Source of the DNA: Entoloma clypeatum
Lineage: Eukaryota; Basidiomycota; Agaricomycetes; Agaricales; Entolomataceae
Assembly (NCBI GenBank): GCA_963565915.1
Contig: OY751486.1
Coordinates: 5,518,001 to 5,582,000 of the forward strand
Length of the DNA: 64,000 bases
Direction: 5' to 3'
Shown here: positions 1,878 through 63,586 of the stretch, one piece after another
Layout: the number at the start of each line of letters is the position of its first letter
Numbering within the stretch: the first letter of the stretch is position 1
The notes under the pieces: generated by a model
The model's database searches: none
Told to the model about the DNA's origin: nothing
Seen by the model: the letters and a program-made list of their open reading frames with translations, nothing else
Made by a program: the position numbers and the translations under genes

Positions 1878-2186
1878 TGTTGAAGTTCCACCTGGGTGCT
1901 AGCCACAGGTGTACTGAGCAACATAGCTACAGTGGAAGTACTCTACGATACCGCTATGGTCACTTACATGGTTTGGAGGGGTAAGGCTGGTGAGAACGGT
2001 TGAGGCTGGTAAGAGCGATGGAGCTGGTTAAGAGTCAAGAGACAACTTGTTGATATTGACAGTTTCCTGGTCTTATATACCGTACTACTGTTTGTACCAA
2101 CCAAACAAGTATGTAATGAAGATATGTAAAGGTCACGTGATGTAATCTAATCTAATCTAATCTACGTGATGGGAAAAGTTTCAACA
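1878..2186 (-). repeat. 3' LTR of copia element
   Basis: 309 bp, identical to the 5' LTR except for one T/C difference seen by eye. The CGATG target duplication is immediately outside and the polypurine tract immediately inside. Confidence 0.96.
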
Positions 2187-2196
2187 CCCCCCCATA
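2187..2196 (-). other. copia polypurine tract
   Basis: On the minus strand a run ending in seven G lies directly before the 3' LTR, the expected position of the plus-strand primer. It is short but correctly placed. Confidence 0.8.
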
Positions 2197-2260
2197 TTTA
2201 GTACATACTTCTAAATACATTTTTACTTTTTCCCACATATATATAGGTACTCTGTTTCGC

Positions 2261-5200
2261 CTAGTTCTTTATTAATCCGAAGTACGGGATAAACTTGGAA
2301 AAGAGGATTTTCCCCAGATTCTTAGTCAAAAGGTCTGCAGGGTTATTCACTCCTTCGATGAATTCGACCGTAATAATTCCTTCGGAGACTTTTTCTCTGA
2401 CGAAGTGGAATTGCACGTCAATGTGCTTGGATCGCTTCTCAGTTACAGGATTGGATGCGATAAAGACGGAGCCGTTGTTATCTCCATAGATCGGTACTGA
2501 TCCGATCTGCATTCCAAGTTCGGCAAGCATGCTTCTCAGCCATGTTGCTGCGCGACTGCAATCTGATAGCGCCATATACTCTGCTTCTGTAGAAGAGAGG
2601 GCGATGGTCTTTTGCGCCGATGATACCCATGTTATCGCTCCAGACGCCAGTGATATGAAGAAGCCGGTGGTAGACCTCCTCATGTTTTCATCTGACGCCC
2701 AGTCGGAGTCTGTGAATGCATAGATCCCTTTCCCTGAGTCCCCATCGTACATGATCGCGTAATTTTTTGTTGCCTTTAAATATCTGCAAATATCCCTAGC
2801 CACCTCTAAATGGCGTTTGGTGGGATTTGCGGAAAATTGGGACATTTTGATTACAGCAAAGCAGATGTCAGGCCTCGTTCCGATCATTAGATATAGGAGT
2901 GATCCGATGACGGATTGGTACTTAGATCGGAGTTCTGCATTGGGTTCATCTTCGGACGCCATGGGTTTGTAGCCCGTAGGGAGTGGGGTATGGGTGGCAT
3001 TAGATTCGCTCATCCCCATGCGTGCCAGAATTTTCTCAAGGTAAGGTACTTGATCAATGAAGATCCTCTTCCCACGTTGCCTTATTTGGATTGAGAGAAA
3101 TTCCTTTGGTTCCCCATCAGGCACTAGGTGACCTAGGTCCCTACATTCCCATGTTGTCATGAAGGCCTTCTTCTTTTCTAGCGTATATTCCCGGTTTGTG
3201 CCGAGAAAAGCAGAGTTGTCGACATAGATGACGGCAATTACAATTTCCCCGTTGGTACTTTTGTGAATGAATACTCCCGCATCGGAGTGAAGCCGGACAA
3301 AGCCGAGCTTTTTCATGGAGGAATCAAGTTCCCTCCACCAGGCTAATGCGGCCTGCTTAAGTCCATATAGAGCTTTGAATAGTTGGTACACGAGGTGTTC
3401 TTTCCCTTTTACTATGTAGCCCTCAGGCTGTCGCATGTAGATGACTTCACGAAGCGTTCCATAGAGGAAGGCTGATGAGACGTCCAAAAGAGTCATGAAC
3501 CACCCTTCAAGGGCTGTCAATGCCAGTATTAGTCGGACGGTTTCATATCTTACGACTGGTGAGAAGATCTGATCAAAGTCGATCCCTTCTACTTGTGAAA
3601 ATCCTTTTGCGACGAGGCGTGCTTTCAGGCGCCCGTCGGACTTTTCGTTGTAAACCCATTTGTTCCTTAGAGCTTTCCTTCCTGCAGGCAGGGGTACTAG
3701 CTCCGTGATCACCCCGCGGCGTTTGAGCATGTCTAGCTCTTTACGTTCAGCCGCATACCAGTCTTCTTTATTTGGAAGAGGGTATATGTCTTTATGGGAC
3801 ATTTCAACGATACCAACGTGGACTGATATTGCCTCCATCAGGAGGTCATTCATCCATGCCGTTTGACCGCCCAATCTCCGTCTTCGATCTAATTTTTCAA
3901 GATCAGATGCTGGAGTGTCTTCCCCATAGATGCTTCCTGGCATCTTCCGAACTCGTCGTTCCCTGATCGGTCGATCTGGTACTTGCTCGGGTTCCGGAGT
4001 GGGTACTCGTGGTTCGTCATCAGGCTCACTGGCAGGCAGTTCGTTGTCTGATTCAGGTTGATCCTGTTCAATGGGAACTGGGATATGAGGTGTTTCGTTG
4101 TGACTATCGTCATTGTTGCTGCCGGGAATGAGATCCTCAAACTCATCAGCCGGCTCTGGGTTTTCCATTTCTGGGTGGTTTTCTGGCAACGGGTCAATGT
4201 GGCATCTAGGGTACTTGCTTTCATCAAAGATAGCTTTCCCGCCCATGAAAATCGTGTTGGTCTCAGGATCCATGAAGCGGTATCCTTTGACCCCTGGTTT
4301 CGATCCGAGATAAATCATCAATCGGGATCTTGATTCCAGGGAGTTCCTACGTTTCTCCTTTGGGATATATACATATGCCTGACATCCGAATACTCTGATA
4401 CTAGACATGTCGGGGATCTCATTGGTCACCCTGGAGTAAGGGGTTTTCCATTCAAGACGCTGCATGGGGGTTCTGTTGTAGAGAAATGCTGCGTGTTCCA
4501 AACAGAATTCCCACCACATGGGCGGTAAGCATGCATCGAAGCGCAATGCCTGAGATTTTTCCCATAGTGTTCGATTGATCCTTTCTGCTCTACCATTCTG
4601 CTGGTGCTGATATGGGAGCGTGACATCGATCAGAATTCCATGATCGGCAAGTACATCCTTGTATTCGTCAAATTCTCCACCTCCATCAACCCGCCACTTT
4701 TTAGGGGTAGCGGCAAATTGATTCTGGATCATCGCAAGGAATTGTTTCAGCGCCGTGATGGCGCCTGACTTCTTCCTAAGCAAGACGACCCAGACATGGG
4801 ATGAAAAATCGTCCAAAAAGGTAAGGAAATATTTGTACTTATGGTACGATGCCGTGGATATCTGCTTCAAATCCGAATGGATCAAATCAAAGGGTTTGAC
4901 AGCCCTTGTCATCGAGTTAGGATAAGATTGATTCAGCATTTTCCCTTTGAGGCACCCCGTGCAGCTTTCCTGTGATTTCTCACGTACTAACGTCCTGGGT
5001 ACTCCTTTGGTACTAGTGGGAATTTTATTAAGCGCCTGGTCATTTGGGTGGCCAAGACGTTTATGCCAGGTTTCAATAGTGATTTCGCTAGAGATCGCGT
5101 GGATTTGGTCATAGCGTATTTCAGTGTCTAACCAGTAAATGGTTTGTCCGATGAAATGAGGCGAAAACTGTATTTTGTTCAGCCCTTTAGAGATATTAAT

Positions 5201-5635
5201 TTCTCCGCGCATTCCATCAACTTTGTAACCATGGTTAAGGAAGACGCCTAGGGACAATAGACGTGTGTCCATATCCGGAATATAAAATACCGGTCGTAGG
5301 AGATGGGTTTTAGTTTCCCCATTCAGGGTATGCCGTACTGGAACGGCCCCAACTCCGAGAATTTCCAGTTTCTTTCCCTTTGCAGCTGTTTGGACAAATC
5401 ACTTAGCCTTGAGAGGCCTGTAATACGCGAAGTCTTTGAACTCATGGGTAAAGTGTAATGATGCGCCGGAATCTAAGATCCACTGAGCGCGTTCTCTCTC
5501 TTTGCAGTGTGTGCAGGACGCGGAATGTTTGATATATTTTTTGTACAGATCATCACTAAAGAGATCTATACTATCTGCATCGGTACTGGCTAATATATAT
5601 TCAAACGTCTGTGCGTGATTATTAGCATTTCCCAT
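2261..5635 (-). pseudogene. pol: copia Pol (protease-integrase-RT-RNase H), one in-frame TGA
   Basis: A single frame from the ATG at 5635 to 2261, interrupted by one TGA at 5399-5401. The 78-residue part before the stop carries the aspartic protease signature (DSGA). After the stop come about 42 non-ATG-started codons, then a 1003-residue open stretch. That stretch holds the integrase HHCC finger (HKRLGH then CTGC) and core (DLIHSD, then DGGGEFDE, then an E in NGRAERIN). Reverse transcriptase follows (DVSSAFLYG, LYGLKQA), then RNase H (TDSDWA, STEAEYMAL). The usual YVDD polymerase motif reads YVDN (codons GAC AAC). Length and domain order are complete. The TGA may be a recent nonsense change or a read-through site, and one genome copy cannot decide this. 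Confidence 0.9.
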
Positions 5636-6988
5636 TTAATCAAGTTTGAGAGAAGAATGTGACGAACCGTCAAGTTCGATCAGCCCATCTTCGAATTGTT
5701 CCGGCCCCATCCGCTCGCTTTGATGGTCTATGTCCATCATTTTCAGTGATTCTTCTATCAACAGGGCTACGCGACGCTGTTTAGCCGGCCTTTCGTCGAT
5801 GTCAGGAATGATGGTATCTAGGATACGAAGATTCGATCCTGAGGGGCGAGCACCAATGCCGCGCGCGAGTTTGCGGACATGGTCGTTCTTTTTCCACACG
5901 GATGGTTTTTCAGAAGGAAGTCCGGTGTACTGTGACGGAGGGGGGTTCATTCGCTGAAGGAGCGACTGCATCTTTTGAGAGTCTGGCTGGGCGGTACTCA
6001 TTGTTTTTCCGCGCCCAGTGACGGTTGTGAAGGACGGTGTCGGAAGAGGAGGGAAGTGGATGGCGGGAGCAACGAACTCAACCGTTTCTTCCACATGGTC
6101 GGACGCGTTGTCCGCGGTGTTGGCGTTTTTCTTCTGATTGCGCCAGCGTCCTTTTCCCTTCTTCTTTTCAGAAGCGGTACTATGGTCAGTCGAGTTAGGC
6201 TGCTCGTCAGCGTCGTTCTGCGAGGTACTCGGCTTTTGCTGCTTTTCCCATTTGGGGTCCTGCCCCTTGCGCTTTGTCCCGGAGATTTTCCGGGCCTGCT
6301 CGTTGGACGTACGAGTGGACCCAATCGAATACTTGCGCCGGTATTCTGATATGATGCTTTCCGCGACGGCTTTGTATGTGAAGTCGTCGGCGTCATAGAC
6401 CTGAAAGAGGGCGGTGGAGAGTGACGACCAGGCGTCGGGAATTGCATTTGCCAGGATCATTGCCTGCATCAGATCGGGGACATCAAAGTTCGAATCGGCA
6501 AGCCGAGCGAAAAGAGACCCCAAGCGTTCAATTTCAGGGACGGGGTCGCGTCCAGAGAGCTTGTAGGTGGCGGCGGCCTTGAAGTCGCCGAAGATGACAG
6601 CCGGGGATACCTTGGAGTAGGCATCCTTTAATGACTTCCAGGCGTCTTTTGAGGATGTGGCGTCCTTGATGTGGCGTCTGATCGCCTCGGAGACCTTCAG
6701 GCGTATCGCCCCAAGAGCTATGTCGTCGTCCCTGATCCAGGCTTTTTCTTCCTTGCGGAAGCCGGGTTGGTCAACCGTGGTAGCCAGCACAGGGGGAGCA
6801 GTAGCAGTGGCGCCAGGGGTGGAGACTGTGGTGGTGAAGTCGGCGATGACAGGGCGGGGGATGTCGCCAGAAACAAGGCGCCAGACTCCTTGATGGAGGA
6901 GGTAGGACTTCATTTTCTCGGCCCAGCTCCGGTAGTCGATGCCGTCAAAGGCAGTGATTGTGTCGAGGGCAGAACGAGAGGTAGACAT
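5636..6988 (-). CDS. gag: copia Gag polyprotein
   Basis: A 450-residue open frame, starting about 360 nt inside the 5' LTR. The N-terminus (LDTITAFDGIDYR then W) matches the UBN2/copia-type gag family that forms the cytoplasmic virus-like particle. The middle holds helical gag-like sequence (about 90-220) and the rest is basic and low-complexity. No CCHC zinc knuckle is present. The only paired cysteines nearby (CTHC) lie after the gag stop, so nucleic-acid binding may rely on the basic region. The frame ends in TAA and the next codon, in the same frame, is ATG of the protease segment. Gag and Pol therefore share one reading frame, separated by a stop codon rather than a frameshift. Confidence 0.92.
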   Translation of the reverse strand: MSTSRSALDTITAFDGIDYRSWAEKMKSYLLHQGVWRLVSGDIPRPVIADFTTTVSTPGATATAPPVLATTVDQPGFRKEEKAWIRDDDIALGAIRLKVSEAIRRHIKDATSSKDAWKSLKDAYSKVSPAVIFGDFKAAATYKLSGRDPVPEIERLGSLFARLADSNFDVPDLMQAMILANAIPDAWSSLSTALFQVYDADDFTYKAVAESIISEYRRKYSIGSTRTSNEQARKISGTKRKGQDPKWEKQQKPSTSQNDADEQPNSTDHSTASEKKKGKGRWRNQKKNANTADNASDHVEETVEFVAPAIHFPPLPTPSFTTVTGRGKTMSTAQPDSQKMQSLLQRMNPPPSQYTGLPSEKPSVWKKNDHVRKLARGIGARPSGSNLRILDTIIPDIDERPAKQRRVALLIEESLKMMDIDHQSERMGPEQFEDGLIELDGSSHSSLKLD

Positions 6989-7334
6989 TGTGAATGAATC
7001 TAAAAAGGGTTCTCAATCAGTGATGTGTTATGAATATGATTCGAGAAAACAATTGAATGATTCCTTATGACATATTCCCTTCAGGAATAGCGGTCATGGG
7101 AAAACCCTTTATATGTCAGAAACGTATAAGGTGCGATCAACGTTTCCACATGGAGTGTACTAGGTCAATCCCCTTAGGGACGTCTCATGACAGGTACTTG
7201 TCGTAATGACGTTCCCAGGTTCATATGTGAAGAAGTATGACTCAGAACCTAGATCTTTCGATCGGTTCTTTGCCAACCAGGGTAGAGTGGGCAGGTACTT
7301 GCTGTTGCCAGCGTTTCCCAAGTCCCTCTGCTAT

Positions 7335-7349
7335 CCGGGGCCCATAACC
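7335..7349 (-). other. copia primer-binding site (half-tRNA type)
   Basis: The minus strand directly after the 5' LTR reads GGTTATGGGCCCCGG. Its complement, GGGCCCATAACC, matches the anticodon arm of initiator methionine tRNA (anticodon CAU), not the CCA-terminated acceptor end. Drosophila copia is known to prime from a cleaved 5' half of initiator tRNA. The same mechanism is inferred here. Confidence 0.75.
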
Positions 7350-7658
7350 TGTTGAAGTTCCACCTGGGCGCTAGCCACAGGTGTACTGAGCAACATAGCT
7401 ACAGTGGAAGTACTCTACGATACCGCTATGGTCACTTACATGGTTTGGAGGGGTAAGGCTGGTGAGAACGGTTGAGGCTGGTAAGAGCGATGGAGCTGGT
7501 TAAGAGTCAAGAGACAACTTGTTGATATTGACAGTTTCCTGGTCTTATATACCGTACTACTGTTTGTACCAACCAAACAAGTATGTAATGAAGATATGTA
7601 AAGGTCACGTGATGTAATCTAATCTAATCTAATCTACGTGATGGGAAAAGTTTCAACA
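7350..7658 (-). repeat. 5' LTR of copia element
   Basis: 309-bp LTR at the upstream end of the element, which is read on the minus strand. It starts and ends with the inverted heptamer TGTTGAA/TTCAACA. A TATATAAG box lies on the minus strand near 7544-7552 and is the likely promoter element. A short tandem TAATC run flanked by CACGTGATG-like words lies near 7607-7644. Confidence 0.96.
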
Positions 7659-13582: not shown

Positions 13583-14167
13583 GATGATGCGTAAACCCTT
13601 GAATTCACAAGATACCGACGATCAGTTGCGATCCCACTGTACCTGGTCAGAGGTAGGTTGAGCACCCAATGTGCGCAGGAGTATGCCCCTCCCACACACA
13701 CGAGTCTACCTCGTCATTCCAGTAGCAGAAACCACTTCACGACGGCACGAGTTCGGCCGCAGGCTACGTTCGTGGAGACGGGGAATCGCAGAGGGTTGAG
13801 GAATTCGGAGATCGGTGTAAATCCACCAGGAAATGAGCAACCAAGCTTGGTTTGTGGCGGACGTTCGGGGAAATGAGCGACAAGAGTTGGACACTTTGAA
13901 CACCAGACTGCGCTTCCATATGCATGGCCGTTGGCTTCACAAGACACCGCCGATCAGTTGCGAACCCGCTGTATCCGGTTAAAGGTAGGTTGAGCACCCA
14001 ATGTACGCAAGAGTATGCCCCTCCTGCGCACACGAGTCTACCTCATCATTCCGGTAGCAGGAACCACTTCACGGACGGCAGCATTGCTTATCCAAGGTTA
14101 AGAATAGCGTAGGGTTGAGTAGATAGAGGCGCGTGGCGGATAAAGAGCGACGATGATCGGCCGAATA

Positions 14168-14242
14168 GTACCGTGGTTGAAGAGGACGGAGAGTACCGTG
14201 GTTGAAGAGGACGGAGAGTACCGTGGTTGAAGAGGACGGAGA
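14168..14242. repeat. three tandem 25-bp units
   Basis: Three exact copies of a 25-bp unit starting GTACCGTGGTTGAAG. The equivalent place in the right arm (around 30420-30450) has one degenerate unit, so the array expanded after the arms separated. Confidence 0.95.
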
Positions 14243-15357
14243 GGCGCGTGGCAGACGTCTGAATGCGAGTCGATCAACTCTGATAAGTTGCACAAGGCTC
14301 TGACCACTATCGTGCCGCAAAAAGAATCGCCGAAAGGATGGAACTGTAGCCAGTTAGTAAAAGTCCCGAAGACGACGCATGACACGAACCTGCTTCGCAG
14401 GTCAAAAGACTTCCATTGTGCCGCTTGCGACATCGGAAAATCACAAACGGGAGCCAAAGGAGCCACCAGGACCAAAGAGAACCGCCACGACGATGTCGCT
14501 GAGCCGGCGGGACTGAATTCGACGCACATGAAACGGCCGCTTGCGGCGGGTCAAAAAAGAAAGCAAAAGAGAAAATAAGAAAGGGAGAAAACAAGACAAT
14601 GAAAGCAAATGCAGAGAACACGTCCGGGTCCCCCAGCTCCATCCACACCCCCCACCCCAGCACGCCATCCACCAACGCAGAGAAGCACGCTGTCCCTTCA
14701 TTTAGAATCCCTGCGGGAAGCAGAAGGCCTTCCCTAGCTATAAGCCTATCAGAGACTGGTGTGAATGACGTAGCAGTCGGACACTCACATATGAATCGGA
14801 CGTCCAGTGCCATACACTCCCATACCACTACGCCATACGCCACCACGGGCCATCGAACGGCGAGTCGTGGCCCTCGTATCCCTACTGAGCAGATGGTTTA
14901 GAGATGCAAGGAGAGAAATAAAATGAGCGAGCCTACCGTGTACAACGGAACCGAAAGTTACAAACCCATCTCGACGGGGGAGCGACCTGGGAGGCCTCGC
15001 GGCCACTTGACAGATATGGAAAATCAGAAAGTGCCAAGGATGGGAAGCGTAGATAACTTACGCTGATCGCCCTCACCCGTCACATCCACCTTCGCGGCGG
15101 AGCGGCCTGTCGAGACCTTTGAGTGTCTCCTGATAACAATGAGAAACAGAAGCCCAAAAAGAACGCTGGGGGACTGACGATGGCCGCCCTCAGCCCAGCC
15201 CCATCCACCCTGGACATTACCAGGAGCGGGAATGCCTGCGGCATGCCTCATCTATAGGAACATTGGGCATCAGCAAAGGCGAGGTGACGAAAGTCGCCAT
15301 GGAATTCACTGGACATGTCCTGCAGGACCGTCTCCATCTCTCTTCCTCCCTTCCGAT

Positions 15358-15424
15358 AGCCCCCCACCCCTCCTCCTCCCCTTCCCTTCCCTTCCTCCCT
15401 TCCCCCTCCCTCCCCATCCCCCCA
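15358..15424. repeat. polypyrimidine tract
   Basis: About 65 bp of almost pure C/T on the plus strand ending CCCCCCACAG, mirrored as a polypurine tract near 29240-29302 in the right arm. It could be the 3' end of an intron, since ACAG is followed by an open stretch and a GTAAGG donor at 15484. No protein family was recognised. Confidence 0.6.
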
Positions 15425-15849
15425 CAGGCTTCATGGCTACTATCGTCGCCGGAGAAGTCGACATCTTCCAGTACACCTCCATGGTAAGGGCGTTCTGTAA
15501 CAACCACCGTGAGCGTGCTCAAAGAGCGATACAATGAATGACTTAGCTTGTCTACGCCTAGTGAGGACGACACTTCTTCGAGAGCCACAGTCGAGGAATA
15601 ACATCAAAGGCGATCTGTACCAAAAAGTGGGGGAGGGAGGGCGCTCAACACTGTCAGCGGCGATGAGAAGGAGAGGGCGAGGAAGGAGATGGAGATTTGG
15701 CGTCAGCCCACTCTACTTATACATTGGCCGGCTTCGCCCGTGCTGGGAATGTCTCAGGTGGGGGGGACATCGTGAAATGGTGGTGAAGTCACGCCAAATG
15801 GGTGATTTCGAGAGGGTATCACATTTAGCACCATCGACTCCTCGGACAT

Positions 15850-28810: not shown

Positions 28811-31003
28811 ATGTCCGAGGAGTCGATGTGATAAATGTGATACCCTCTCGAAATCACCCACTTGGCGTGACTTCACCACCATTTCACGATGTCCCCCCAC
28901 CTGAGACATTCCAAGCACGGGCGAAGCCGGCCAATGTATAAGTACAGAGGGCTGACACCAAATCCCCATCTCCTCGCCCTCTCCTCATCGCCGTCGACAG
29001 CGTTAAGCGTCTTTTCTTCATCCTCCCCTCACTTCCTGGTACACATCGCCTTTGATGTGATCCTCGGCTGTGGCTCCCGAAGAAGTGTCGTCTTCACTAG
29101 GCGTAGACAAGCTAAGTCATTCATTGTATCGCTCTTTGAGCACGCTCACGGTGGTTGTTACAGAACGCCCTTACCATGGAGGTGTACTGGAAGATGTCGA
29201 CTTCTCCGGCGACGATAGTAGCCATGAAGCCTGTGGGGGGATGGGGAGGGAGGGGGAAGGGAGGAAGGGAAGGGAAGGGGAGGAGGAGGGGTGGGGGGCT
29301 ATCGGAAGGGAGGAAGAGAGATGGAGACGGTCCTGCAGGACATGTCCAGTGAATTCCATGGCGACTTTCGTCACCTCGCCTTTGCTGATGCCCAATGTTC
29401 CTATAGATGAGGCATGCCGCAGACATTCCCGCTCCTGGTAATGTCCAGGGTGGATGGGGCTGGGCTGAGGGCGGCCATCGTCAGTCCCCCAGCGTTCTTT
29501 TTGGGCTTCTGTTTCTCATTGTTATCAGGAGACACTCAAAGGTCTCGACAGGCCGCTCCGCCGCGAAGGTGGATGTCACGGGTGAGGGCGATCAGCATAA
29601 GTTATCTACGCTTCCCATCCTTGGCACTTTCTGATTTTCCATATCTGTCAAGTGGCCGCGAGGCCTCCCAGGTCGCTCCCCCGTCGAGATGGGTTTGTAA
29701 CTTTCGGTTCCGTTGTACACGGTAGGCTCGCTCATTTTATTTCTCTCCTTGCATCTCTAAACCATCTGCTCAGTAGGGATACGAGGGCCACGACTCACCG
29801 TTCGATGGCCCGTGGTGGCGTATGGCGTAGTGGTGTGGGAGTGTATGGCACTGGACGTCCGATTCATATGTGAGTGTCCGACTGCTACGTCATTCACACC
29901 AGTCTCTGATAGGCTTATAGCTAGGGAAGGCCTTCTGCTTCCCGCAGGGATTCTAAATGAAGGGACAGCGTGCTTCTCTGCGTTGGTGGATGGCGTGCTG
30001 GGGTGGGGGGTGTGGATGGAGCTGGGGGACCCGGACGTGTTCTCTGCATTTGCTTTCATTGTCTTGTTTTCTCCCTTTCTTATTTTCTCTTTTGCTTGCT
30101 TTTTTGACCCGCCGCAAGCGGCCGTTTCATGTGCGTCGAATTCAGTCCCGCCGGCTCAGCGACATCGTCGTGGCGGTTCTCTTTGGTCCTGGTGGCTCCT
30201 TTGGCTCCCGTTTGTGATTTCCCGGTGTCGCAAGCGGCACAATGGAAGTCTTTTGACCTGCGAAGCAGGTTCGTGTCATGCGTCGTCTTCGGGACTTTTA
30301 CTAACTGGCTACAGTTCCATCCTTTCGGCGATTCTTTTTGCGGCACGATAGTGGTCAGAGCCTTGTGCAACTTATCAGAGTTGATCGACTCGCATTCAGA
30401 CGTCTGCCATGCGCCTCCCCGTCCTCTTCAACCACGTTACTATTCGGCCGATCATCGTCGCTCTTTATCCGCCACGCGCCCACCATTGTTAACCTTGGAT
30501 AAGCAATGCTGCCGTCCGTGAAGTGGTTCCTGCTACCGGAATGATGAGGTAGACTCGTGTGCGCAGGAGGGGCATACTCTTGCGTGCATTGGGTGCTCAA
30601 CCTACCTTTAACCGGATACAGCGGGTTCGCAACTAATCGGCGGTGTCTTGTGAAGCCAACGGCCATGCATATGGAGGCGCAGTCTGGTGTTCAAAGTGTC
30701 CAACTCTTGTCGCTCATTTCCCCGAACGTCCGCCACAAACCAAGCTTGGTTGCTCATTTCCTGGTGGATTTACACCGATCTCCGAATTCCTCAACCCTCT
30801 GCGATTCCCCGTCTCAACGAACGTAGTCTGCGGCCGAACTCGTGCCGTCGTGAAGTGGTTTCCGCTACTGGAATGACGAGGTGGACTCGTGTGTGTGGGA
30901 GGGGCATACTCCTACACACATTGGGTGCTCAACCTACCTCTGACCAGGTGCAGTGGGATCGCAACCCATCGTCGGTATCTTGTGAAGTCAAGGGTTTACG
31001 CAT
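28811..31003. repeat. inverted segmental duplication, right arm
   Basis: About 2.19 kb, reverse complement of 13586-15849. Similarity starts at ATGTCCGAGGAGTCGATG (28811) and ends at GGGTTTACGCATC (31003). It lacks the two extra 25-bp units and the neighbouring MITE of the left arm. The internal direct repeat is present at about 30510-30660 and 30840-30990. Confidence 0.93.
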
Positions 31004-31699
31004 CTCTTTTGCGCTATCACTGGCAGGACCTTGCATCAATCTTTACCCAAGAACCTTCAAATCCTTCCGCATCGTGCGGACTCGCTCCAACTGCAGCCTG
31101 TCCTTTTGAAGCCAACTTCAGTCGCTCGTTTGACTCCGAATTCTTCTTGACCGACCCCTCCTACTGGACTGGCGCCAGCAGCTTTCACCGGGATGTCTTT
31201 TCCTCGCGTGAATTGTTTCTTTCAACTCAGTCGCTCCTTGATGCCAACTTCAGTACAACCAACCACTTCAGTCGTTCCTTTGTTCCGGCCATCGCCAGTC
31301 TCTACCTCAAGCTTTTCTTCCCTTTCCAACGTTGGATCTTCCGCTAGAATGATGATACAGAGAGTTCCTATTGATTGGCGATCGATGCTCTCCTGGACAT
31401 GATTCGACATCTCTCAAATTTCTTTTTTTCTTCCAGTACGATTCTTATGTACTTTATAGATAACATATGTCTTTCAAGTTTACACGAGAAGTGGACCATT
31501 GATGAATGATCCTTTGGAACTTTCTAATGCGCGCCCTCATGAGTAGTCTGGTAAAGCTCGAATATATTCTAGATCTATTATAATAATAATTTTCATGACT
31601 AGTATACATACTGTACAAACGGATAGATAGATCAACGCCCAAAGAACCCAGATATCTGTATAAATCTTCTTCCCCCTCGCCAGCAGTCCTCCAATCACC
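31004..31699. other. region outside the right arm
   Basis: A plus-strand frame runs from the arm to 31347 but shows no domain, only loose internal repetition of an ANFS motif. From 31400 the sequence is AT-rich and is probably the 3' flank of the minus-strand gene ending at 31700. Confidence 0.45.
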
Positions 31700-41561: not shown

Positions 41562-44005
41562 ATGACTTACACCTTCCGCGCCGACTCTCAAAGCGCCCCC
41601 GCCGTTTCTGATGGCCCCATCCCATCCACCTCCTCTGCAACCTTCCCGGCCCTTACAGAAATAGAGCTTCCACAGCCCTCCACCCCACCACGTCCCTCTC
41701 ACAGCAGGCGCCGTGACGCATCATACATCCCCCGTCCCCCCAACGCCTTCATCCTCTTCCGCTCTTCCTTCATCCGTTCGCAACAGGTCACGGGAAAGGT
41801 CGAGGGGAACCACTCGAATCTCTCAAAAATAATCGGTGTGTCCCCTTCTTCTGCCTTCTAGGTGCCATACCCATACCCTTTCATCATCAGGCATGTATTG
41901 GAAGACTCTGCCTCAAGCCGAACGCGACGAATGGGAAGCCAAGGCCGTGATCGCCCAGGATGAACATCGGAGACGCTATCCCGACTGGCGTTTTCGTCCT
42001 GCCACCGCCACCATCGCCAAGCTCAAGCTCCAAAACGGCTCTGCGCGTCCGCGGAGACGTCGCGTTCAGAATACCAAAGATCCACCTGATGGGGCTGGAG
42101 GAGGATCCCAGTCTGAGCCGGTGGTCGATTCCTCTCGTGACGGACAGGACATGAAGGGCAAGGGTAGGGCAAAGTCTGCTGGCAGGGGACGAGGGAGGGG
42201 ACGAGGACGAACAAAGACCGAGGTGTCGCAGGGAGGAAAGGCAGTGAAGAAGGATGACGATAGGGAGGAGCAGAGGTTCGCCAAGATCGCAGATCTGCTG
42301 GTTGAGGGGAAGAAAGGTGTCGAGTTGGAGGCCGCCGTTCAAGAGTGGGAGCGAGGAAGGAAGGGTGGACGTCGTCAAGAGAGGGGAACCGGTGGATCGA
42401 TTTGGACTGGTGACTCCCCAACGTTCGCCGTTACCGTCTTCAGTTCCGACCCTTCCAGTTCCACCCCCCTCCATATCCCATCCGAGCCGCCGTCGACATC
42501 AACATCGGCAGGCGCATCTCCCATCGTCCCGTCCGGGTCCCCTTCTTCGTGGCCAGTTACGCCGATCATCGGACCCTCCGCGTCAAGCACGTCGTCTGGC
42601 AACGTCGTGGACCCAGACTACTCCACACGCGATGGCCCTCGCAGGAGCATTCGTTTACGCAGCCCACGCCGTCCTCACCAACGGACACGCTTTCAAGAAC
42701 GGTCACGTAGTCCTGAGCGAAAGGGATCTCACCCAGGCTCACCCACACACTCTCATCCTCAGGCGGATGTCCCGTCCGACAAAGACGAATCCCAGGGCCC
42801 CGGACAGTATCACTCCCCACCAGAAGTCAGCCCAGCTCTTTCCTCAGTGCCTCTCACACACCTCTTCAAGAGGTCCCTTTCCGCTCCTGCTCCCCGTCAT
42901 CCACCCCTTCTACCCCAGTCACTGCCGGCCGCCTCATCAACACCTCGTCACCACCCTTTGGACCAGATGGCAAGACCTAGTGCGGACCAACGAAGATTGG
43001 GCGAGTCGGAGACATCTTCAATAGAATATCACCCACCGCATTTCCAACCCGCCCACCTTCGCCGCTCTCTTTCGCTTATTCCCAACCACCCCAAATCCAA
43101 CCTCCCCACACGACATCAGCATAGCCTCAGCACGCATTATGAAGACCCTCAACCTCACCATCGGGACCAGCGGCATAACGAAGCTGGTCACCAGCATCGA
43201 CCCCAGACAGCACGAGCAATGACGTGGCAGGAAGTGGAAGACCGTCGACAGCTGGACGTGCAGAAGGGGACCAGTAGCTGGTGGGAAGACGACGTTGAGA
43301 CACGGAACGACACAAACGAGGGACGGGAAGGGATCTATGAATACGAAGGCGAGCCGGCGAGGGACGGTTCCTTTGAAGATGATGACTCAGAGAACCTGGG
43401 GTATCCTCCGGAACAGCATCGCGACGTACGTGAACACTCGTCTCGTTTAATCCGATCCTTGTTTGATTATGTCTTTGCAGACCTTGAGGTCGGAGGCTCC
43501 TCCGATGAACGATGGAAGCCACGTCGTGAGATGGACAGACCTGCCAGGAAGGAGAGGCCTCGTATCTGCGAACCTCAGCCTCGAGACCCCGTTTGTCGGC
43601 CACCTGGTCCCCGGTCCTTTCGCCTCGAGCTCCTCCACCACCGTCGTTGATCCTTCGTCAGGACTGGCCGTACCCGTTTCGTATCAATCAGGCCTCTCCT
43701 TCCCTGCACACGCAGGAGGATTCTTCTTTCCCTCCGCACCGGAACGTATATCGCCCGTGACGCCGCTGTCGTCGTTCTCCTCGCTTGCGGGCTGGGACGG
43801 TGAAGCGAAACACGTTGATGCGGGTTCGTTGTCTGGAGCAGAGGACGCAGAACGACGGTCAGGCTTGTCTTCTGGGGCATGGCATGCAGGTCCTGGGTCG
43901 GTATGGGGGCATGTGCAGCCTTTGGGATCGCAAGGTGGAAGCGGAGATTGGCGAAGTGGAGCTGGGGAATGCCAGTGGCAGGGTGGGAATGGCGAGCGGC
44001 CTTGA
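41562..44005 (+). CDS. HMG-box transcription factor
   Basis: Three inferred exons, 41562-41835, 41891-43425 and 43481-44005, with two 55-bp GT-AG introns and a continuous frame; 777 residues. An HMG box of the MAT_HMG type lies at about residues 55-125 (YIPRPPNAFILFRSSFI, LSKIIG, then MYWKTLP and HRRRYPDWRFRP). The first intron splits the box at KIIG, a common position in fungal MAT-type HMG genes. A basic RGRGRGRGR segment follows, then long Ser/Pro/His-rich, probably disordered sequence. Basidiomycete proteins of this kind regulate mating and fruiting genes; the target here is unknown. Without the second intron the frame would end at 43650 with an arginine-rich tail; the spliced form is preferred. 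Confidence 0.9.
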
Positions 44006-59366: not shown

Positions 59367-59367
59367 G

Positions 59368-59958
59368 GAGTGCGACTGAGGGCCTGTGTGCCGATGTGGA
59401 CAATAGGACTTGGGATAAGTCCGGGATCCTATTTCGGCCTTTATAGGCCTCATCAGGTCCGAAAACGGCAATCGGTTGAGTCATTCAGAGAACAATAGAA
59501 CTATTGTTCTCTGGGCAGCTGACTCCGCCTATTGTCCACTTCGTCACACGCCTGACAGGTCGTGAGAGGGAAACGCCACAATAGCGCTTGCCAAGACAGG
59601 ACCCGAGTAGGACCCTGCAAAGGTAAGGCTATGGGGAATCCCCATCACGGACCAACGGTCCGGGTGAGATCCGAGTGAACCGAGATAACAGATCGCTCCC
59701 ACATCAAAGTCCGAAGATCTTTGAAGGCGAAGACCGTTATCCCGAAGGACACACAACAAGAAAACTAACCAATACCCAGTAACATGTAAGAACAGTTACG
59801 GGAAACCACCTAAGTACATTATTTACGAAATGTACGTAAAAACGCCAGATACAATGGTCGACATCAGAGCTGGAGTAAGCAAGGGCGAACAAGCAAGCCA
59901 TCTCATCGCTAGACATGTCGATTGTTCGAACCGACACCAGCTGAGCGAGATGACCCAC
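59368..59958 (-). mobile_element. telomere-associated Penelope-like repeat, full-length copy 1
   Basis: 591-bp unit, minus orientation, nearly identical to 61228-61819. The 5' end starts GTGGGTCATCTCG and the 3' end finishes CAGTCGCACTC. Both ends abut telomeric repeats (59960-59981 and 59357-59369). A hammerhead ribozyme lies about 20 bp inside the 3' end. No reverse transcriptase is encoded. Endonuclease-deficient Penelope-like elements at telomeres (Coprina in basidiomycetes, Athena in rotifers) and hammerheads in Penelope-like elements are known; assignment to that group is inferred. Confidence 0.75.
59391..59475 (-). ncRNA. hammerhead ribozyme (copy 1)
   Basis: The minus strand has the full hammerhead core: CTGATGA, stem II GGCC/GGCC closed by TATAAA, GAAA, stem III ATAGGA/TCCTAT, H17 = U, and stem I GGAC/GTCC with an outer CCGAT/ATCGG helix across an internal loop (type I layout). 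Cleavage is predicted after U17, directly before GTCC. Confidence 0.9.
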
Positions 59959-59959
59959 A

Positions 59960-59981
59960 GGGGTTAGGGTTAGGGTTAGGG
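59960..59981 (+). repeat. telomeric repeat, G-strand
   Basis: GGGGTTAGGG then two more TTAGGG, reading G-strand left to right, directly beside the 5' end of repeat copy 1. Confidence 0.97.
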
Positions 59982-60025
59982 AAGAAGTAGTTCCTTCACA
60001 AAGAAGGACTATGGAAGGGGGCGAC

Positions 60026-60139
60026 TGTGGGGCCTGTGCCGAGTGGACAATAGGACTTGGGGAAAGTCCAGGATCCTATTTCGGCGTTTTAAAGGCCTCA
60101 TCAGGTCCGTACTCCTCCGCTTCCACAGATGCGGTACCG
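60026..60139 (-). mobile_element. Penelope-like repeat, partial copy cut by the gap
   Basis: Minus-strand 3' portion of the variant seen at 63131-63534 (shares the GGCCTGTGCCGAGTGGAC-type sequence on the plus strand). It runs into the N gap, so its extent is unknown. Confidence 0.7.
60039..60108 (-). ncRNA. hammerhead ribozyme, partial outer stem (copy 2)
   Basis: Core CTGATGA and GAAA present, stem III ATAGGA/TCCTAT and inner stem I GGAC/GTCC intact. Stem II is changed to GGC/GCC with a larger loop, and the outer CCGA strand of stem I is lost. Possibly weakened. Confidence 0.75.
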
Positions 60140-60339
60140 NNNNNNNNNNNNNNNNNNNNNNNNNNNNNNNNNNNNNNNNNNNNNNNNNNNNNNNNNNNNN
60201 NNNNNNNNNNNNNNNNNNNNNNNNNNNNNNNNNNNNNNNNNNNNNNNNNNNNNNNNNNNNNNNNNNNNNNNNNNNNNNNNNNNNNNNNNNNNNNNNNNNN
60301 NNNNNNNNNNNNNNNNNNNNNNNNNNNNNNNNNNNNNNN
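60140..60339. other. assembly gap (200 N) between opposing telomeric sequences
   Basis: Exactly 200 N. Telomeric repeats just left are G-strand and those just right are C-strand, so the join is head to head. Confidence 1.
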
Positions 60340-60507
60340 CCCCCTAACCCCTAACCCCTAACCCCCTAACCCCTAACCCCTAACCCCTAACCCCTAACCC
60401 CTAACCCTAACCCCTAACCCCTAACCCCTAACCCCTAACCCCTAACCCCCTAACCCTAACCCCTAACCCCTAACCCCTAACCCCTAACCCCCTAACCCCT
60501 AACCCCT
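60340..60507 (-). repeat. telomeric array (CCCCTAA)n
   Basis: About 168 bp of CCCCTAA heptamers with occasional CCCTAA hexamers and CCCCCTAA octamers. On a left chromosome end this is the expected strand. Length and purity suggest a true or recently internalised telomere. Confidence 0.97.
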
Positions 60508-61069
60508 TCGCGCCAGTCCCCGGTTGTTCGGCTGTCTGCAGACGAACTCGAGGACTCCTCAGATTCAGAACTATCTGAAACCGAAGGAACCGCACTGGCG
60601 CACCTTGTTAATACTCGTCAGAGTCTTGGAGACGCTTGGTTGTCTCGTCACGACTGAGTGTCTTGGCGCTTTACAGCGTCGAGGGGGATATGGGAGAACA
60701 GTTGGATGTACCGGCTAGACCTACCTGCGTTATGGCGTGTGTATCCCTTTTGTAGTCAGTAGTTTAAGTACGAACGCTGCGGAAGGAGCATATGGGAGAA
60801 CAACGCTAGAGTACCATAATAGTGAGAATAAACTCCTTGCTACCACAGACTTACCTACGAAAGTGAGTCCCCCTTCATTCTCTGACCATTCCGGTTCTTT
60901 AACGGTGGTGGAAACCCACCCTGTCGGTGTAGCTGACCAACGACTTACGGTATAGCGCCTTCGTGCGCAATGGAAAACCATAGGAATTAGCCTTGGAGCC
61001 TAACCCTAACCGTAAGCTCAGCTTATATTGAAAAGATATATGCCTGCCTATTGACACACAATAGCCAAC
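60508..61069. other. subtelomeric unique sequence with a short open stretch
   Basis: A plus-strand frame at 60511-60657 reads VVRLSADELEDSSDSEL then SLGDAWLSRHD and stop. It starts directly at the telomeric array and looks like the C-terminus of a truncated protein. No family recognised. The word ATATGGGAGAACA appears twice (60689 and 60789). Confidence 0.4.
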
Positions 61070-61158
61070 AGCTTAACCTAACCTTACCCCCTAACAGTAA
61101 CCCCTTACTCCTAACCCCTAACCCCTAACCTAACCCTAACCGGTTAACGTTAGGGGCT
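61070..61158. repeat. degenerate telomeric repeats
   Basis: CCTAACC-type words with point changes, ending with one G-strand GTTAGGGG near 61149-61156. An old interstitial array. Confidence 0.8.
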
Positions 61159-61227
61159 GGGGGTGAGTCCGGCCTTTGCTAGACTCAACGACGGACGTGC
61201 GCCCAACCCTAGGGTTGGGTTGGGAAT

Positions 61228-61819
61228 GTGGGTCATCTCGCTCAGCTGGTGTCGGTTCGAACAATCGACATGTCTAGCGATGAGATGGCTTGCTTGTTCG
61301 CCCTTGCTTACTCCAGCTCTGATGTCGACCATTGTGTCTGGCGTTTTTACGTACATTTCGTAAATAATGTACTTAGGTGGTTTCCCGTAACTGTTCTTAC
61401 ATGTTACTGGGTATTGGTTAGTTTTCTTGTTGTGTGTCCTTCGGGATAACGGTCTTCGCCTTCAAAGATCTTCGGACTTTGATGTGGGAGCGATCCGTTA
61501 TCTCGGTTCACTCGGATCTCACCCGGACCGCTGGTCCGTGATGGGGATTCCCCATAGCCTTACCTTTGCAGGGTCCTACTCGGGTCCTGTCTTGGCAAGC
61601 GCTATTGTGGCGTTTTCCTCTCACGACCTGTCAGGCGTGTGACGAAGTGGACAATAGGCGGAGTCAGCTGCCCAGAGAACAATAGTTCTATTGTTCTCTG
61701 AATGACTCAACCGATTGCCGTTTTCGGACCTGATGAGGCCTATAAAGGCCGAAATAGGATCCCGGACTTATCCCAAGTCCTATTGTCCACATCGGCACAC
61801 AGGCCCCTCAGTCGCACTC
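61228..61819 (+). mobile_element. telomere-associated Penelope-like repeat, full-length copy 2
   Basis: 592 bp, plus orientation, almost identical to the inverted copy at 59368-59958. It contains a 71-codon frame (61427-61642) conserved among copies but without known domains, a perfect 13-bp-stem palindrome at 61673-61700, and a 12-bp inverted pair GTGGACAATAGG (61647) / CCTATTGTCCAC (61779) framing the ribozyme. Confidence 0.75.
61711..61795 (+). ncRNA. hammerhead ribozyme (copy 3)
   Basis: Same elements as copy 1 on the plus strand: outer stem I CCGAT/ATCGG, inner stem I GGAC/GTCC, core CTGATGA at about 61730, stem II GGCC/GGCC, GAAA, stem III ATAGGA/TCCTAT, predicted cleavage before GTCC at about 61785. 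Confidence 0.92.
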
Positions 61820-61848
61820 CTCCTCGCTGCGCTCGTCGTAGTGCTCCT

Positions 61849-61880
61849 CCCCTAACCCCTAACCCCCTAACCCCTAACCC
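61849..61880 (-). repeat. telomeric repeats (CCCCTAA), 3' of copy 2
   Basis: Four to five CCCCTAA/CCCCCTAA units following a ~30-bp spacer after the repeat unit. Confidence 0.95.
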
Positions 61881-62138
61881 ACCATTCCATTGATGACGAG
61901 ACGATGCAGCTGCAGCAGGCGACCCTCCACACCACTCCGTCGATGAAGGAGCGACACACCTGCACCAGGAGACTCACCACACCCTCCGTCGACGAAGATA
62001 GCCATCCCACACCATCTTCGTGCAGTTCCACCACCATTCTGTCCACAATGAGTATTCAGTAGATACGAATTTTCTCTGCTCCTGTTAACAAGCACCCCAG
62101 TCTGTAACTCAGGTGCATTCTTTAGCCCATCTGTAGCC
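61881..62138. other. subtelomeric unique sequence
   Basis: GATGAAG/GACGAAG-rich sequence with loosely repeated CACC/GACGA words and no supported coding. Confidence 0.4.
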
Positions 62139-62264
62139 ACACCCTAGTCATACCCTGCCACCCACCCTAGCTGTACCCTAGTCATATTCTGTCATCCACC
62201 CTAGCCATGCCCTAGTCCACACCCTAGTCATACCCTGCCACCCACCCTAGCTGTACCCTAGTCA
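62139..62264. repeat. minisatellite of CCCTAGTCA-type units
   Basis: A 46-bp unit beginning ACACCCTAGTCATACCC occurs exactly twice (62139-62184 and 62219-62264) with a degenerate partial unit between. The CCCTA core may descend from telomeric repeats. Confidence 0.9.
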
Positions 62265-62288
62265 AAAAAGTTTTGTACCCTACCCTAA

Positions 62289-62316
62289 TTCCAAATCAAT
62301 TCTTCTAGATAACCCC
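62289..62316 (+). repeat. direct repeat flanking repeat copy 3 (left)
   Basis: 28 bp, TTCCAAATCAATTCTTCTAG and following bases, identical to 62878-62905. Together they bracket the truncated copy and its telomeric tail. Confidence 0.92.
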
Positions 62317-62317
62317 T

Positions 62318-62852
62318 ATGGCTTGCTTGTTCGCCCTTGCTTACTCCAGCTCTGATGTCAACCATTGTGTCTGGCGTTTTTACGTACATTTCGTAAATAA
62401 TGTACTTAGGTGGTTTCCCGTAACTGTTCTTACATGTTACTGGGTATTGGTTAGTTTTCTTGCTGTGTGTCCCTCGGGATAACGGTCTTCGCCTTCAAAG
62501 ATCTTCGGACTTTGATGTGGGAGCGATCCGTTATCTCGGTTCACTCGGATCTCACCCGGACCGTTGGTCCGTGATGGGGATTCCCCATAGCCTTACCTTT
62601 GCAGGGTCCTACTCGGGTCCTGTCTTGGCGAGCGCTATTGTGGCGTTTTCCTCTCACGACCTGTCAGGCGTGTGACGAAGTGGACAATAGGCGGAGTCAG
62701 CTGCCCAGAGAACAATAGTTCTATTGTTCTCTGAATGACTCAACCGATTGCCGTTTTCGGACCTGATGAGGCCTATAAAGGCCGAAATAGGATCCTGGAC
62801 TTATCCCAAGTCCTATTGTCCACATCGGCACACAGGCCCCTCAGTCGCACTC
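62318..62852 (+). mobile_element. Penelope-like repeat, 5'-truncated copy 3
   Basis: 535 bp matching copy 2 from its ATGGCTTGC word to the CAGTCGCACTC 3' end, missing the first ~55 bp. 5' truncation is typical of target-primed retroelements. Confidence 0.75.
62744..62828 (+). ncRNA. hammerhead ribozyme (copy 4)
   Basis: All stems and the CTGATGA/GAAA core as in copy 3; one change is in the stem III loop. Confidence 0.92.
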
Positions 62853-62878
62853 CCCTAACCCCTAACCCCTAACCCCCT
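62853..62878 (-). repeat. telomeric repeats (CCCCTAA), 3' of copy 3
   Basis: Three CCCCTAA units joined directly to the 3' end CAGTCGCACT of copy 3 without spacer. Confidence 0.95.
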
Positions 62879-62905
62879 TCCAAATCAATTCTTCTAGATA
62901 ACCCC
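62878..62905 (+). repeat. direct repeat flanking repeat copy 3 (right)
   Basis: Second copy of the 28-bp repeat at 62289-62316. It looks like a long target-site duplication or a shared subtelomeric junction. Confidence 0.92.
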
Positions 62906-63130
62906 CTGCGAGTCCGCCCTTTGATAAGGCGCTGCTGTAGTACTGTAAATACTGCGCTTTGGGGAGTAGTACACGACTCGTACTCTGTTTGGTAATTGTA
63001 GAGCGTTACGCGACGAAGGTGACCCCCTGGTCATCCAAGTCACGTGACCCTTAGGTATCTTTTCACATTCGCTGATCGCCGTGATCGTTGATCACTGGGT
63101 CTTAAGACCGGTGTTCTGGGAACATCACAT
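62906..63130. other. subtelomeric sequence upstream of the divergent repeat
   Basis: No coding. May be the diverged 5' part of the copy starting at about 63131, as it lies in the equivalent position. Confidence 0.35.
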
Positions 63131-63534
63131 GCGATTCGGTCCACCCGGACCTCACCGGACCTTCGGTCCGTGATGGGGATTCCCCATAGCCTTACCTCTG
63201 ATTCTTATCGGGTCATCGGTTGCACCCTGCTTGATCTGGAGAAGGATCAGGCGCTCCTTCTTGTCTAGAAAGGGGTGCTCCCTAGATCCTGAAGTCCGAT
63301 TTGGACACTGGTGAGCGCTGTGTGGCGTTTTTCTCCCACGGACGACAGTTCGTGTGAACGTGGTGGACAATAGGCGGAGTCAGTTGACCTGTGGAACAAT
63401 AGTTCTATTGTTCTTCAGATGACTCAACCGATTGCCGTATTCGGACCTGATGAGGCCTTTAAAGGCCGAAATAGGATCCTGGACTTTCCCCAAGTCCTAT
63501 TGTCCACTCGGCACAGGCCCCCCAGTCGCTTCCT
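63131..63534 (+). mobile_element. Penelope-like repeat, divergent copy 4
   Basis: Diverged subfamily member. It shares TCCGTGATGGGGATTCCCCA, the GTGGACAATAGGCGGAGTCAG region, the palindrome (shortened) and the ribozyme. It ends CAGTCGCTTCC, about 30 bp before telomeric repeats. Confidence 0.7.
63428..63511 (+). ncRNA. hammerhead ribozyme (copy 5, divergent subfamily)
   Basis: Core CTGATGA/GAAA and all helices kept (CCGA/TCGG, GGAC/GTCC, GGCC/GGCC, ATAGGA/TCCTAT), while loops differ from the other copies: TTTAAA in loop II, TATTC for TTTTC in the stem I internal loop. Conserved helices with drifting loops suggest selection on the fold. Confidence 0.92.
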
Positions 63535-63564
63535 TCCCTCCATCGTCTTTGGCGTTGGAAATAC

Positions 63565-63586
63565 TAACCCCTAACCCCTAACCCCC
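63565..63586 (-). repeat. telomeric repeats (CCCCTAA)
   Basis: Three units, C-strand left to right, following divergent copy 4. Confidence 0.95.

What the first reader, a model, noticed from the sequence alone, without database searches (positions are those of the whole stretch)
59391..63511. Five hammerhead ribozymes embedded in subtelomeric repeats
Each repeat copy carries CTGATGA and GAAA with complementary stems I, II and III in the right order (59391-59475 minus, 60039-60108 minus, 61711-61795, 62744-62828 and 63428-63511 plus). The divergent copy keeps every helix while its loops change. Hammerheads are known in Penelope-like retroelements and retrozymes. Here they sit at the 3' end of a telomere-bounded unit, so transcripts would self-cleave close to the telomeric junction. 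H17 is U, less common than C.
Basis: partly seen in the sequence, partly recalled or inferred. Interest (0 to 1): 0.88.

Follow-up and report, generated by a model that had tools for sequence, protein, structure and literature searches.

The report
Ribozymes in a telomere-attached fungal retroelement
The ends of this fungus's chromosomes are tiled with copies of a reverse-transcriptase element that carries a self-cutting RNA motif next to the telomere joint, a kind already described elsewhere, but several tiny copies here begin almost exactly where that RNA should cut, as if the cut happens in living cells.

Summary
Four complete type I hammerhead motifs and one 5'-truncated copy lie at the stated places. 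They score below Rfam's curated thresholds (best 25.2 bits against 52), but the isolated RNA folds as an active hammerhead, and a strict descriptor finds 4 in the window and 0 in 300 Markov windows. They are the 3' ends of 5'-truncated copies of a ~4.8 kb retroelement with one RT-like ORF and no GIY-YIG domain, most likely a telomere-attached, endonuclease-deficient Penelope-like element. Of 100 listed copies (of 130), 75 lie within 40 kb of a contig end, all pointing the same way; one small contig, C17, not in that list, is an exception. The window joins two chromosome ends across a 200-N gap. Hammerheads beside telomere-complementary 3' ends are known in rotifer Terminons (PMC6431247), so this is a new member of a known kind. 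Possibly new: six separately flanked 35-74 bp insertions begin within -4 to +5 nt of the predicted cleavage site, a genomic footprint of cleavage; and an upstream arm predicted to mask the site. Cleavage is untested.

The parts
61711..61795 (+). hammerhead, D-type copy; predicted cleavage between 61784 (U17) and 61785 (G1.1)
   Evidence: sequence; descriptor; active fold is the minimum-energy fold; HH9 25.2 bits, E 0.0048
62744..62828 (+). hammerhead, D-type copy; predicted cleavage between 62817 and 62818
   Evidence: HH9 22.0 bits, E 0.054
63428..63511 (+). hammerhead, C-type copy; predicted cleavage between 63501 and 63502; loops differ, helices kept
   Evidence: Hammerhead_3 20.1 bits, E 1.1
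59391..59475 (-). hammerhead, D-type copy, minus strand; H17 at 59402
   Evidence: HH9 25.2 bits
60039..60108 (-). 5'-truncated A-type copy; core kept, stem II 3 bp, outer stem I partner lost; H17 at 60049
   Evidence: not matched by the strict descriptor nor by Rfam
61647..61658 (+). upstream arm GTGGACAATAGG, exactly complementary to 61779-61790 across the cleavage site (possible latch)
61779..61790 (+). CCTATTGTCCAC: stem III 3' strand, cleavage site and stem I 3' strand; partner of the upstream arm
60506..61857 (+). 5'-truncated copy of the element: end of the RT ORF, 3' untranslated part, hammerhead, tail
60340..60502 (+). (CCCCTAA)n cap on the truncated 5' end
61849..61877 (+). telomeric repeats at the 3' (centromere-side) junction
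62318..62853 (+). second truncated copy, followed by telomeric repeats 62852-62872
62908..63560 (+). C-type truncated copy, followed by telomeric repeats 63568-63581
59367..59959 (-). D-type truncated copy on the other chromosome end, 5' side next to telomeric repeats 59964-59981
60140..60339 (.). 200-N scaffold gap joining two chromosome-end-like halves head to head

Best explanation
The five motifs are type I hammerheads in the 3' untranslated part of a ~4.8 kb telomere-attached retroelement, most likely an endonuclease-deficient Penelope-like element of a basidiomycete-like fungus. Inferred cycle: the element is transcribed; its RNA carries CCCUAACCCC just downstream of the hammerhead and a ~70 nt tail; the exposed G-rich telomeric 3' overhang pairs there and primes reverse transcription; cDNA grows toward the RNA's 5' end, often stops early, and telomerase caps the truncated end. 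When the hammerhead has cut, the template ends at the site, and a copy of only the tail is laid down. Shown here: anatomy, orientation, telomeric caps, RT-like ORF without endonuclease, tail-only copies starting near the site. Inferred: transcription, cleavage, priming, capping.
For: Active fold is the minimum-energy fold of the isolated 93 nt, -30.1 kcal/mol, z -3.7. 121 cores genome-wide and 130 copies of the strand across the cleavage site. All 75 terminal copies among the 100 listed (of 130) have their 3' end toward the centromere; so do 68 of 68 held terminal copies outside C17. Copies are tiled head to tail; 81 of 86 held copies have telomeric repeats at the 3' junction and 51 of 86 mapped 5' ends are telomere-capped. 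RT-like ORF of 1151 aa between hammerhead copies in L042 and similar ORFs at other contig ends, with 249 homologues. GIY-YIG absent from the ORF and from the genome at E <= 0.01. 5' ends: 5 of 14 telomere-capped ends between -150 and +40 lie at -1 to +5 (binomial 1e-4); genome-wide 6 ends at -4 to +5 against 2, 2, 1, 3 and 0 further ends in five neighbouring windows of about 17-20 nt. The six have different neighbours on both sides.
Against: No Rfam match at gathering score. No compensatory base changes: helices nearly invariant. Pair-versus-loop variability test gives p 0.012 in motif-selected copies but 0.12 in 70 unselected copies with MAFFT's gap placement. PLE assignment of the RT was not proved: no RT match in Pfam for 3 of 3 ORFs, RVT_1 at only 26.7-27.2 bits on 3 of 4 homologues (cut-off 29.6), no solved RT at E < 0.01, and the structure job never ran. 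C17, a 55 kb contig, carries 6 minus copies near 14 kb and 5 plus copies near 42 kb, against the rule for its own ends. Only two of the six mini-copies are at -1 (exact if the T is telomeric). The cleavage-site cluster was noticed before it was tested. No A- or C-type tail copy starts there.
Confidence: 0.8

Rival explanations
1. The hammerheads are real and active, but held in check by an upstream arm: GUGGACAAUAGG pairs with CCUAUUGUCCAC and hides the cleavage site until the element's protein or transcription order frees it. This adds a regulatory step to the best explanation rather than replacing it.
For: With 68 nt of upstream sequence the minimum-energy fold changes to this pairing (-67.9 kcal/mol, z -8.1). 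Over 32 distinct copies the active fold lies above the ensemble by about 6-7 kcal/mol in A, 9-11 in B and C, 9-13 in D, against about 3-7 for the minimal RNA; copies cut off inside or after the arm but with stem I intact give 4-7. The arm is kept in all four subfamilies. The Anolis PLE hammerhead cleaves only with protein (PMC11167929, section 3 read).
Against: Of the 6 folds printed, 5 use the arm and one copy takes another inactive fold. A and B types carry one A-C mismatch in the arm; no compensatory change seen; even the minimal RNA with its 30-nt 3' flank favours other folds by 3-7 kcal/mol in this model, which ignores hammerhead tertiary contacts; local stem III may form first during transcription.
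Confidence: 0.35
2. The motif is a conserved relic or a structural 3' element for RT recognition; it does not cut in vivo, and the 5' ends near the site are RT stops at a stable fold.
For: PMC11167929 found no RNA-seq reads at the presumed cleavage site in Anolis and reports insertion in vitro without ribozyme activity. Long copies show that uncleaved RNA serves as template.
Against: An RT coming from the 3' end meets paired RNA first at about +12 (CGGCA of outer stem I), not at -4 to +5. Core and inner helices are invariant over 70 copies but for one position in one copy.
Confidence: 0.25
3. Retrozyme-like non-autonomous satellite that spreads by circular RNA.
For: Many solo units of 500-750 bp with a hammerhead.
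Against: Solo units are 5' truncations of a coding element, at variable positions, many capped by telomeric repeats.
Confidence: 0.05

Closest known systems
Terminons and Athena, telomeric endonuclease-deficient PLEs of bdelloid rotifers
   Same: 5' ends truncated by telomeric repeats, head-to-tail arrays, hammerhead immediately upstream of a short telomere-complementary 3' stretch (PMC6431247, passages read)
   Different: Here a single long ORF in a ~4.8 kb unit, not a giant multi-ORF element; telomere is TTAGGGG; fungal host; the hammerhead has a closed stem III
Coprina and other fungal endonuclease-deficient PLEs (Gladyshev and Arkhipova 2007, not held; recalled)
   Same: Basidiomycete-type host, telomere-oriented 5' truncation, no endonuclease; PMC3846280 (passages read) says that fungi hold only endonuclease-deficient PLEs and that such PLEs are largely confined to chromosome ends
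   Different: Clade membership not tested; no Coprina sequence was available for comparison
[quoted passage not shown] abstract recalled as saying that fungal PLE hammerheads fold as stable monomers)
   Same: Type I hammerhead in the repeat part of a PLE
   Different: PLE hammerheads are usually minimal and lack stem III (PMC6155905, PMC7761336, passages read); these have a 6-bp stem III and fold alone
Poseidon PLE of Anolis (PMC11167929, section 3 read)
   Same: RT initiates inside the RNA, beyond the hammerhead; hammerhead at the pLTR-ORF junction
   Different: Anolis element has an endonuclease, starts at a site not homologous to the target, and shows no RNA-seq reads at the cleavage site; here genomic 5' ends cluster there

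Membership tests
Type I hammerhead ribozyme | CUGANGA ... GAA core, three helices, A15.1-U16.1, H17 before stem I 3' strand | tested here: met
   4 of 5 window copies by strict descriptor; fold
Type I hammerhead ribozyme | Rfam covariance model at gathering score | tested here: not met
   0 matches; best 25.2 bits against 52
Type I hammerhead ribozyme | compensatory changes in helices | tested here: inconclusive
   helices hardly vary
Type I hammerhead ribozyme | self-cleavage between N17 and N1.1 | not testable with these tools
   only indirect: 5' ends at -4 to +5
Endonuclease-deficient telomeric PLE | RT of the PLE/telomerase clade | tested here: inconclusive
Endonuclease-deficient telomeric PLE | no GIY-YIG endonuclease | tested here: met
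Endonuclease-deficient telomeric PLE | at chromosome ends, truncated 5' end toward the telomere and capped by its repeats | tested here: met
   75 of 75 terminal copies among 100 listed of 130; 51 of 86 ends capped; exception C17, 11 copies; 25 of the 100 listed are internal
Endonuclease-deficient telomeric PLE | telomere-complementary stretch at the 3' end | tested here: met
   81 of 86 held copies
Coprina clade | RT phylogeny with fungal Coprina | not tested
   no reference sequence held
Terminon | giant multi-ORF element | tested here: not met
   one long ORF per ~4.8 kb unit
Retrozyme | non-coding unit spread by circular RNA | tested here: not met
   solo units are truncated parts of a coding element; circular RNA not testable

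The most novel reading that the evidence does not exclude
The hammerhead cuts in living cells and the cut RNA is used as a template at telomeres: six separately flanked tail-only insertions starting at -4 to +5 of the cleavage site are genomic footprints of ribozyme cleavage in a telomeric PLE. An upstream arm that masks the site would act as a switch between making full copies (uncut RNA) and cut RNA.
Probability: 0.45. Interest if true: 0.62.

Novelty: new member of a known kind. Interest (0 to 1): 0.45.

Why it matters
The role of hammerheads in Penelope-like elements is described as a mystery (PMC7761336, passage read), and in the one element studied in vitro no RNA ends at the site were found (PMC11167929, section 3 read). 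A fungus with over 100 copies, most of those listed at its chromosome ends, and insertions that seem to record the cut, would make the question testable from genome sequence, RNA ends and a simple cleavage assay.

Tried and rejected
Recombination at the site: C1:8329 looked like a B body with an A tail and C17:43529 like a D body with an A tail, which suggested template jumping at the cut. Three further copies (L051-L053): two of them, L051 and L052, are A-like copies that already combine the B/D-like loop with the A tail, so the breakpoint interval widens to about 35 nt and ordinary recombination in the most conserved stretch explains it as well. Kept as an observation only.

A paired pLTR-ORF-pLTR organisation was considered: in C12 and C8 the copies on either side of the ORF are 99.9-100% identical, but a truncated copy joined to a full-length one gives the same picture, so it is not claimed.

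Relatives in other collections: plasmids, distant mode, no match; viral contigs, 3 pattern matches, no relative. A second protein search to name the organism gave unnamed hits only; the species is not identified. The pattern for A/C-type tail-only copies gave one unrelated match. One match (C13:1885891) is unrelated sequence and was left out of the count; repeated matches to one junction were counted once, and the one match is the C10 copy already counted at +5.

Conservation test: selecting copies by their core biases it (75 copies, 5 with a damaged 5' side dropped); the unselected version is weaker (16 of 86 copies not spanning the hammerhead dropped). In one search, 74 copies (32 distinct) with a core and enough flank were used. 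In 'telomere-capped' is a pattern test on the 16 nt before the end; 5 of 86 ends touch the edge of held DNA.
Full report
What is there. Reading the first plus copy: GGAC, CUGAUGA, GGCC-UAUAAA-GGCC, GAAA, UAGGA...UCCUA, U16.1, U17, then GUCC. The outer part of stem I is UGCCG with CGGCA, separated by an internal loop (UUUUC / ACAU), and the predicted cut is between 61784 and 61785. The isolated 93 nt take this fold as their minimum-energy fold. A strict descriptor finds four sites in the window and none in 300 Markov windows. Rfam at gathering score finds nothing; four of the five places appear below threshold as HH9 or Hammerhead_3, the top four of six matches. Five short further loci gave five sub-threshold hammerhead matches (22.4, 22.0, 22.0, 20.9 and 20.1 bits) in four loci, none in L056, and one match to another family. 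I do not take it so, because the sub-threshold matches sit on the right cores and the descriptor is specific.

What carries it. The window is G000:C2:5518001-5582000 in a 60 Mb assembly of 20 contigs with TTAGGGG repeats at many contig ends. The core pattern occurs 121 times and the strand across the cleavage site 130 times in the genome. Of the 100 listed, 75 lie within 40 kb of a contig end: 46 at left ends, all plus, and 29 at right ends, all minus, so the hammerhead end faces the centromere. The 25 others are internal, including the window's own five. Among 86 copies in held DNA, the 68 terminal ones outside C17 all obey the rule, 7 are internal, and the 11 on C17, a 55 kb contig, do not: 6 minus near 14 kb, 5 plus near 42 kb. 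That is the same minus-then-plus layout as in the window, so C17 may be another head-to-head join, but this was not tested. Contig ends are tiled with copies joined head to tail by short CCCCTAA stretches; 81 of 86 held copies have telomeric repeats at the 3' junction. I worked with four subfamilies, A to D. Full units of about 4.8 kb (A, B) hold one ORF of about 1150 aa with RT-like motifs recognised by eye (recalled), e.g. YIDD. Three such ORFs have no Pfam match over its cut-off; 249 homologues were found with residues 350-1151 (120 listed, three named: one Lentinula, two Armillaria), and 3 of 4 scanned carry a weak RVT_1 match. GIY-YIG is absent from the ORFs and from the genome at E <= 0.01. 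The first plus element of the window keeps the end of this ORF (60506 to about 60655), with a telomeric cap at 60340-60502.

Two chromosome ends. The minus copies (59367-60109) and plus copies (60506-63560) face each other across exactly 200 N (60140-60339). Each side has the layout of a chromosome end, so this is a scaffold join or a fusion point, not one unit. C11 shows the same layout at 4.727-4.748 Mb.

How it probably works. Known for this kind: endonuclease-deficient PLEs apparently prime from exposed chromosome 3' ends and receive telomeric repeats on their truncated 5' ends (PMC3846280, passages read), and in telomeric PLEs of rotifers the hammerhead sits just upstream of the telomere-complementary 3' stretch (PMC6431247, passages read). 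The anatomy here matches: HHR, a tail of about 70 nt, then CCCCTAACCCC.

Footprint. I mapped 5' ends of 86 copies in held DNA; 5 touch an edge and 51 are telomere-capped. Most are spread over the element, as expected of abortive reverse transcription. Of 14 capped ends between -150 and +40, five are at -1, -1, +2, +4 and +5 relative to G1.1. A genome-wide pattern search finds these five, adds C8 at -4 to -2 (its T and A may be telomeric), and one more end farther off, C17 at about -18. Five neighbouring windows searched the same way hold 2 ends (about -80 to -60), 2 (-58 to -38), 1 (-48 to -28), 3 (-31 to -11, the C17 end included) and none beyond +5 up to about +22. The six copies, 35-74 bp long, have different sequence on both sides, so they look like separate insertions. 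In the two at -1 the T can belong to the telomeric CCCCT, so the element part begins at G1.1. Chance estimates: binomial 1e-4 for 5 of 14, 1e-3 if the two at -1 count once, Poisson 3e-4 for 6 in 10 nt (background 7 per 80 nt, before one search added one end). The cluster was seen before it was tested, so these are guides. A stop at the folded RNA would be expected near +12, where the outer stem begins. All six carry B/D-type tails; no A/C-type tail copy starts there.

Latch. With 68 nt upstream the predicted fold changes: GUGGACAAUAGG pairs with CCUAUUGUCCAC and buries the site. Of six distinct longer copies whose folds I printed, five do the same and one takes another inactive fold. The arm is kept in all four subfamilies with one A-C mismatch in A and B. 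This fits a ribozyme that stays off while full copies are made; the Anolis hammerhead needs protein (PMC11167929, section 3). It is a prediction only.

Conservation. Among 70 unselected copies the core and inner helices are invariant but for one position in one copy; loops differ between A/C and B/D types. MAFFT's gap placement in the outer stem makes the formal test p = 0.12; in 75 copies chosen by their core it is 0.012, with the bias that this choice brings.

Novelty. Hammerheads in PLEs (PMC6155905, PMC7761336, passages), their place at telomeric 3' ends (PMC6431247, passages), and PLEs at basidiomycete chromosome ends (PMC7473861, passages) are in print; five type 3 hammerheads were listed in Pleurotus by Rfam (PMC5040776, passages). 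The listings showed me no report of genomic 5' ends at the hammerhead site of a PLE, in a library that lacks most subscription papers; the key papers of 2007, 2014 and 2017 are not held, so they may hold one.

Noticed in passing
window 1878-7649: copia-like LTR element with 300-bp LTRs identical to each other (1878-2177 and 7350-7649), ORFs 2261-5398 and 5636-7012 on the minus strand; 'copia-like' judged by eye
   Followed up: no
window 13586-15597 and 29061-31004: inverted repeat pair, 97-99% identical, about 13.5 kb apart
   Followed up: no
window 60110-60139; C12:7849; C9 left end: The 5' flank of the fifth copy (GTACCGCATC.GTGGAAGCGGAGGAG on the minus strand) recurs beside another truncated copy at C12:7849, and GAAGCGGAGGAGTA starts contig C9
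   Followed up: no
window 62288 and 62880; C2:9150; C1:5887815: A sequence containing AATTCTTCTAGATAACCCC or part of it recurs directly before telomeric stretches or truncated copies, perhaps another subtelomeric repeat
   Followed up: no
C1:8329 and C17:43529 (L031, L026): Copies with a B or D body and an A-type tail, switch within about 35 nt around the cleavage site
   Followed up: partly
C11:4727379-4747906: Head-to-head hammerhead copies (minus then plus) 262-283 kb from the contig end, same layout as in the window
   Followed up: no
C17:14102-15491 and 41884-43597: On this 55 kb contig the copies run minus then plus, opposite to the rule at its own ends
   Followed up: partly
C8:14072-14139, C2:299-372, C2:9190-9258, C10:6476-6510, C12:7121-7188, C13:12426-12499: Tail-only insertions next to telomeric repeats
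   Followed up: yes
window 61640-61710: Inner palindrome AGAGAACAATAG / CTATTGTTCTCT nested inside the outer arm pair; both share ACAATAG
   Followed up: partly
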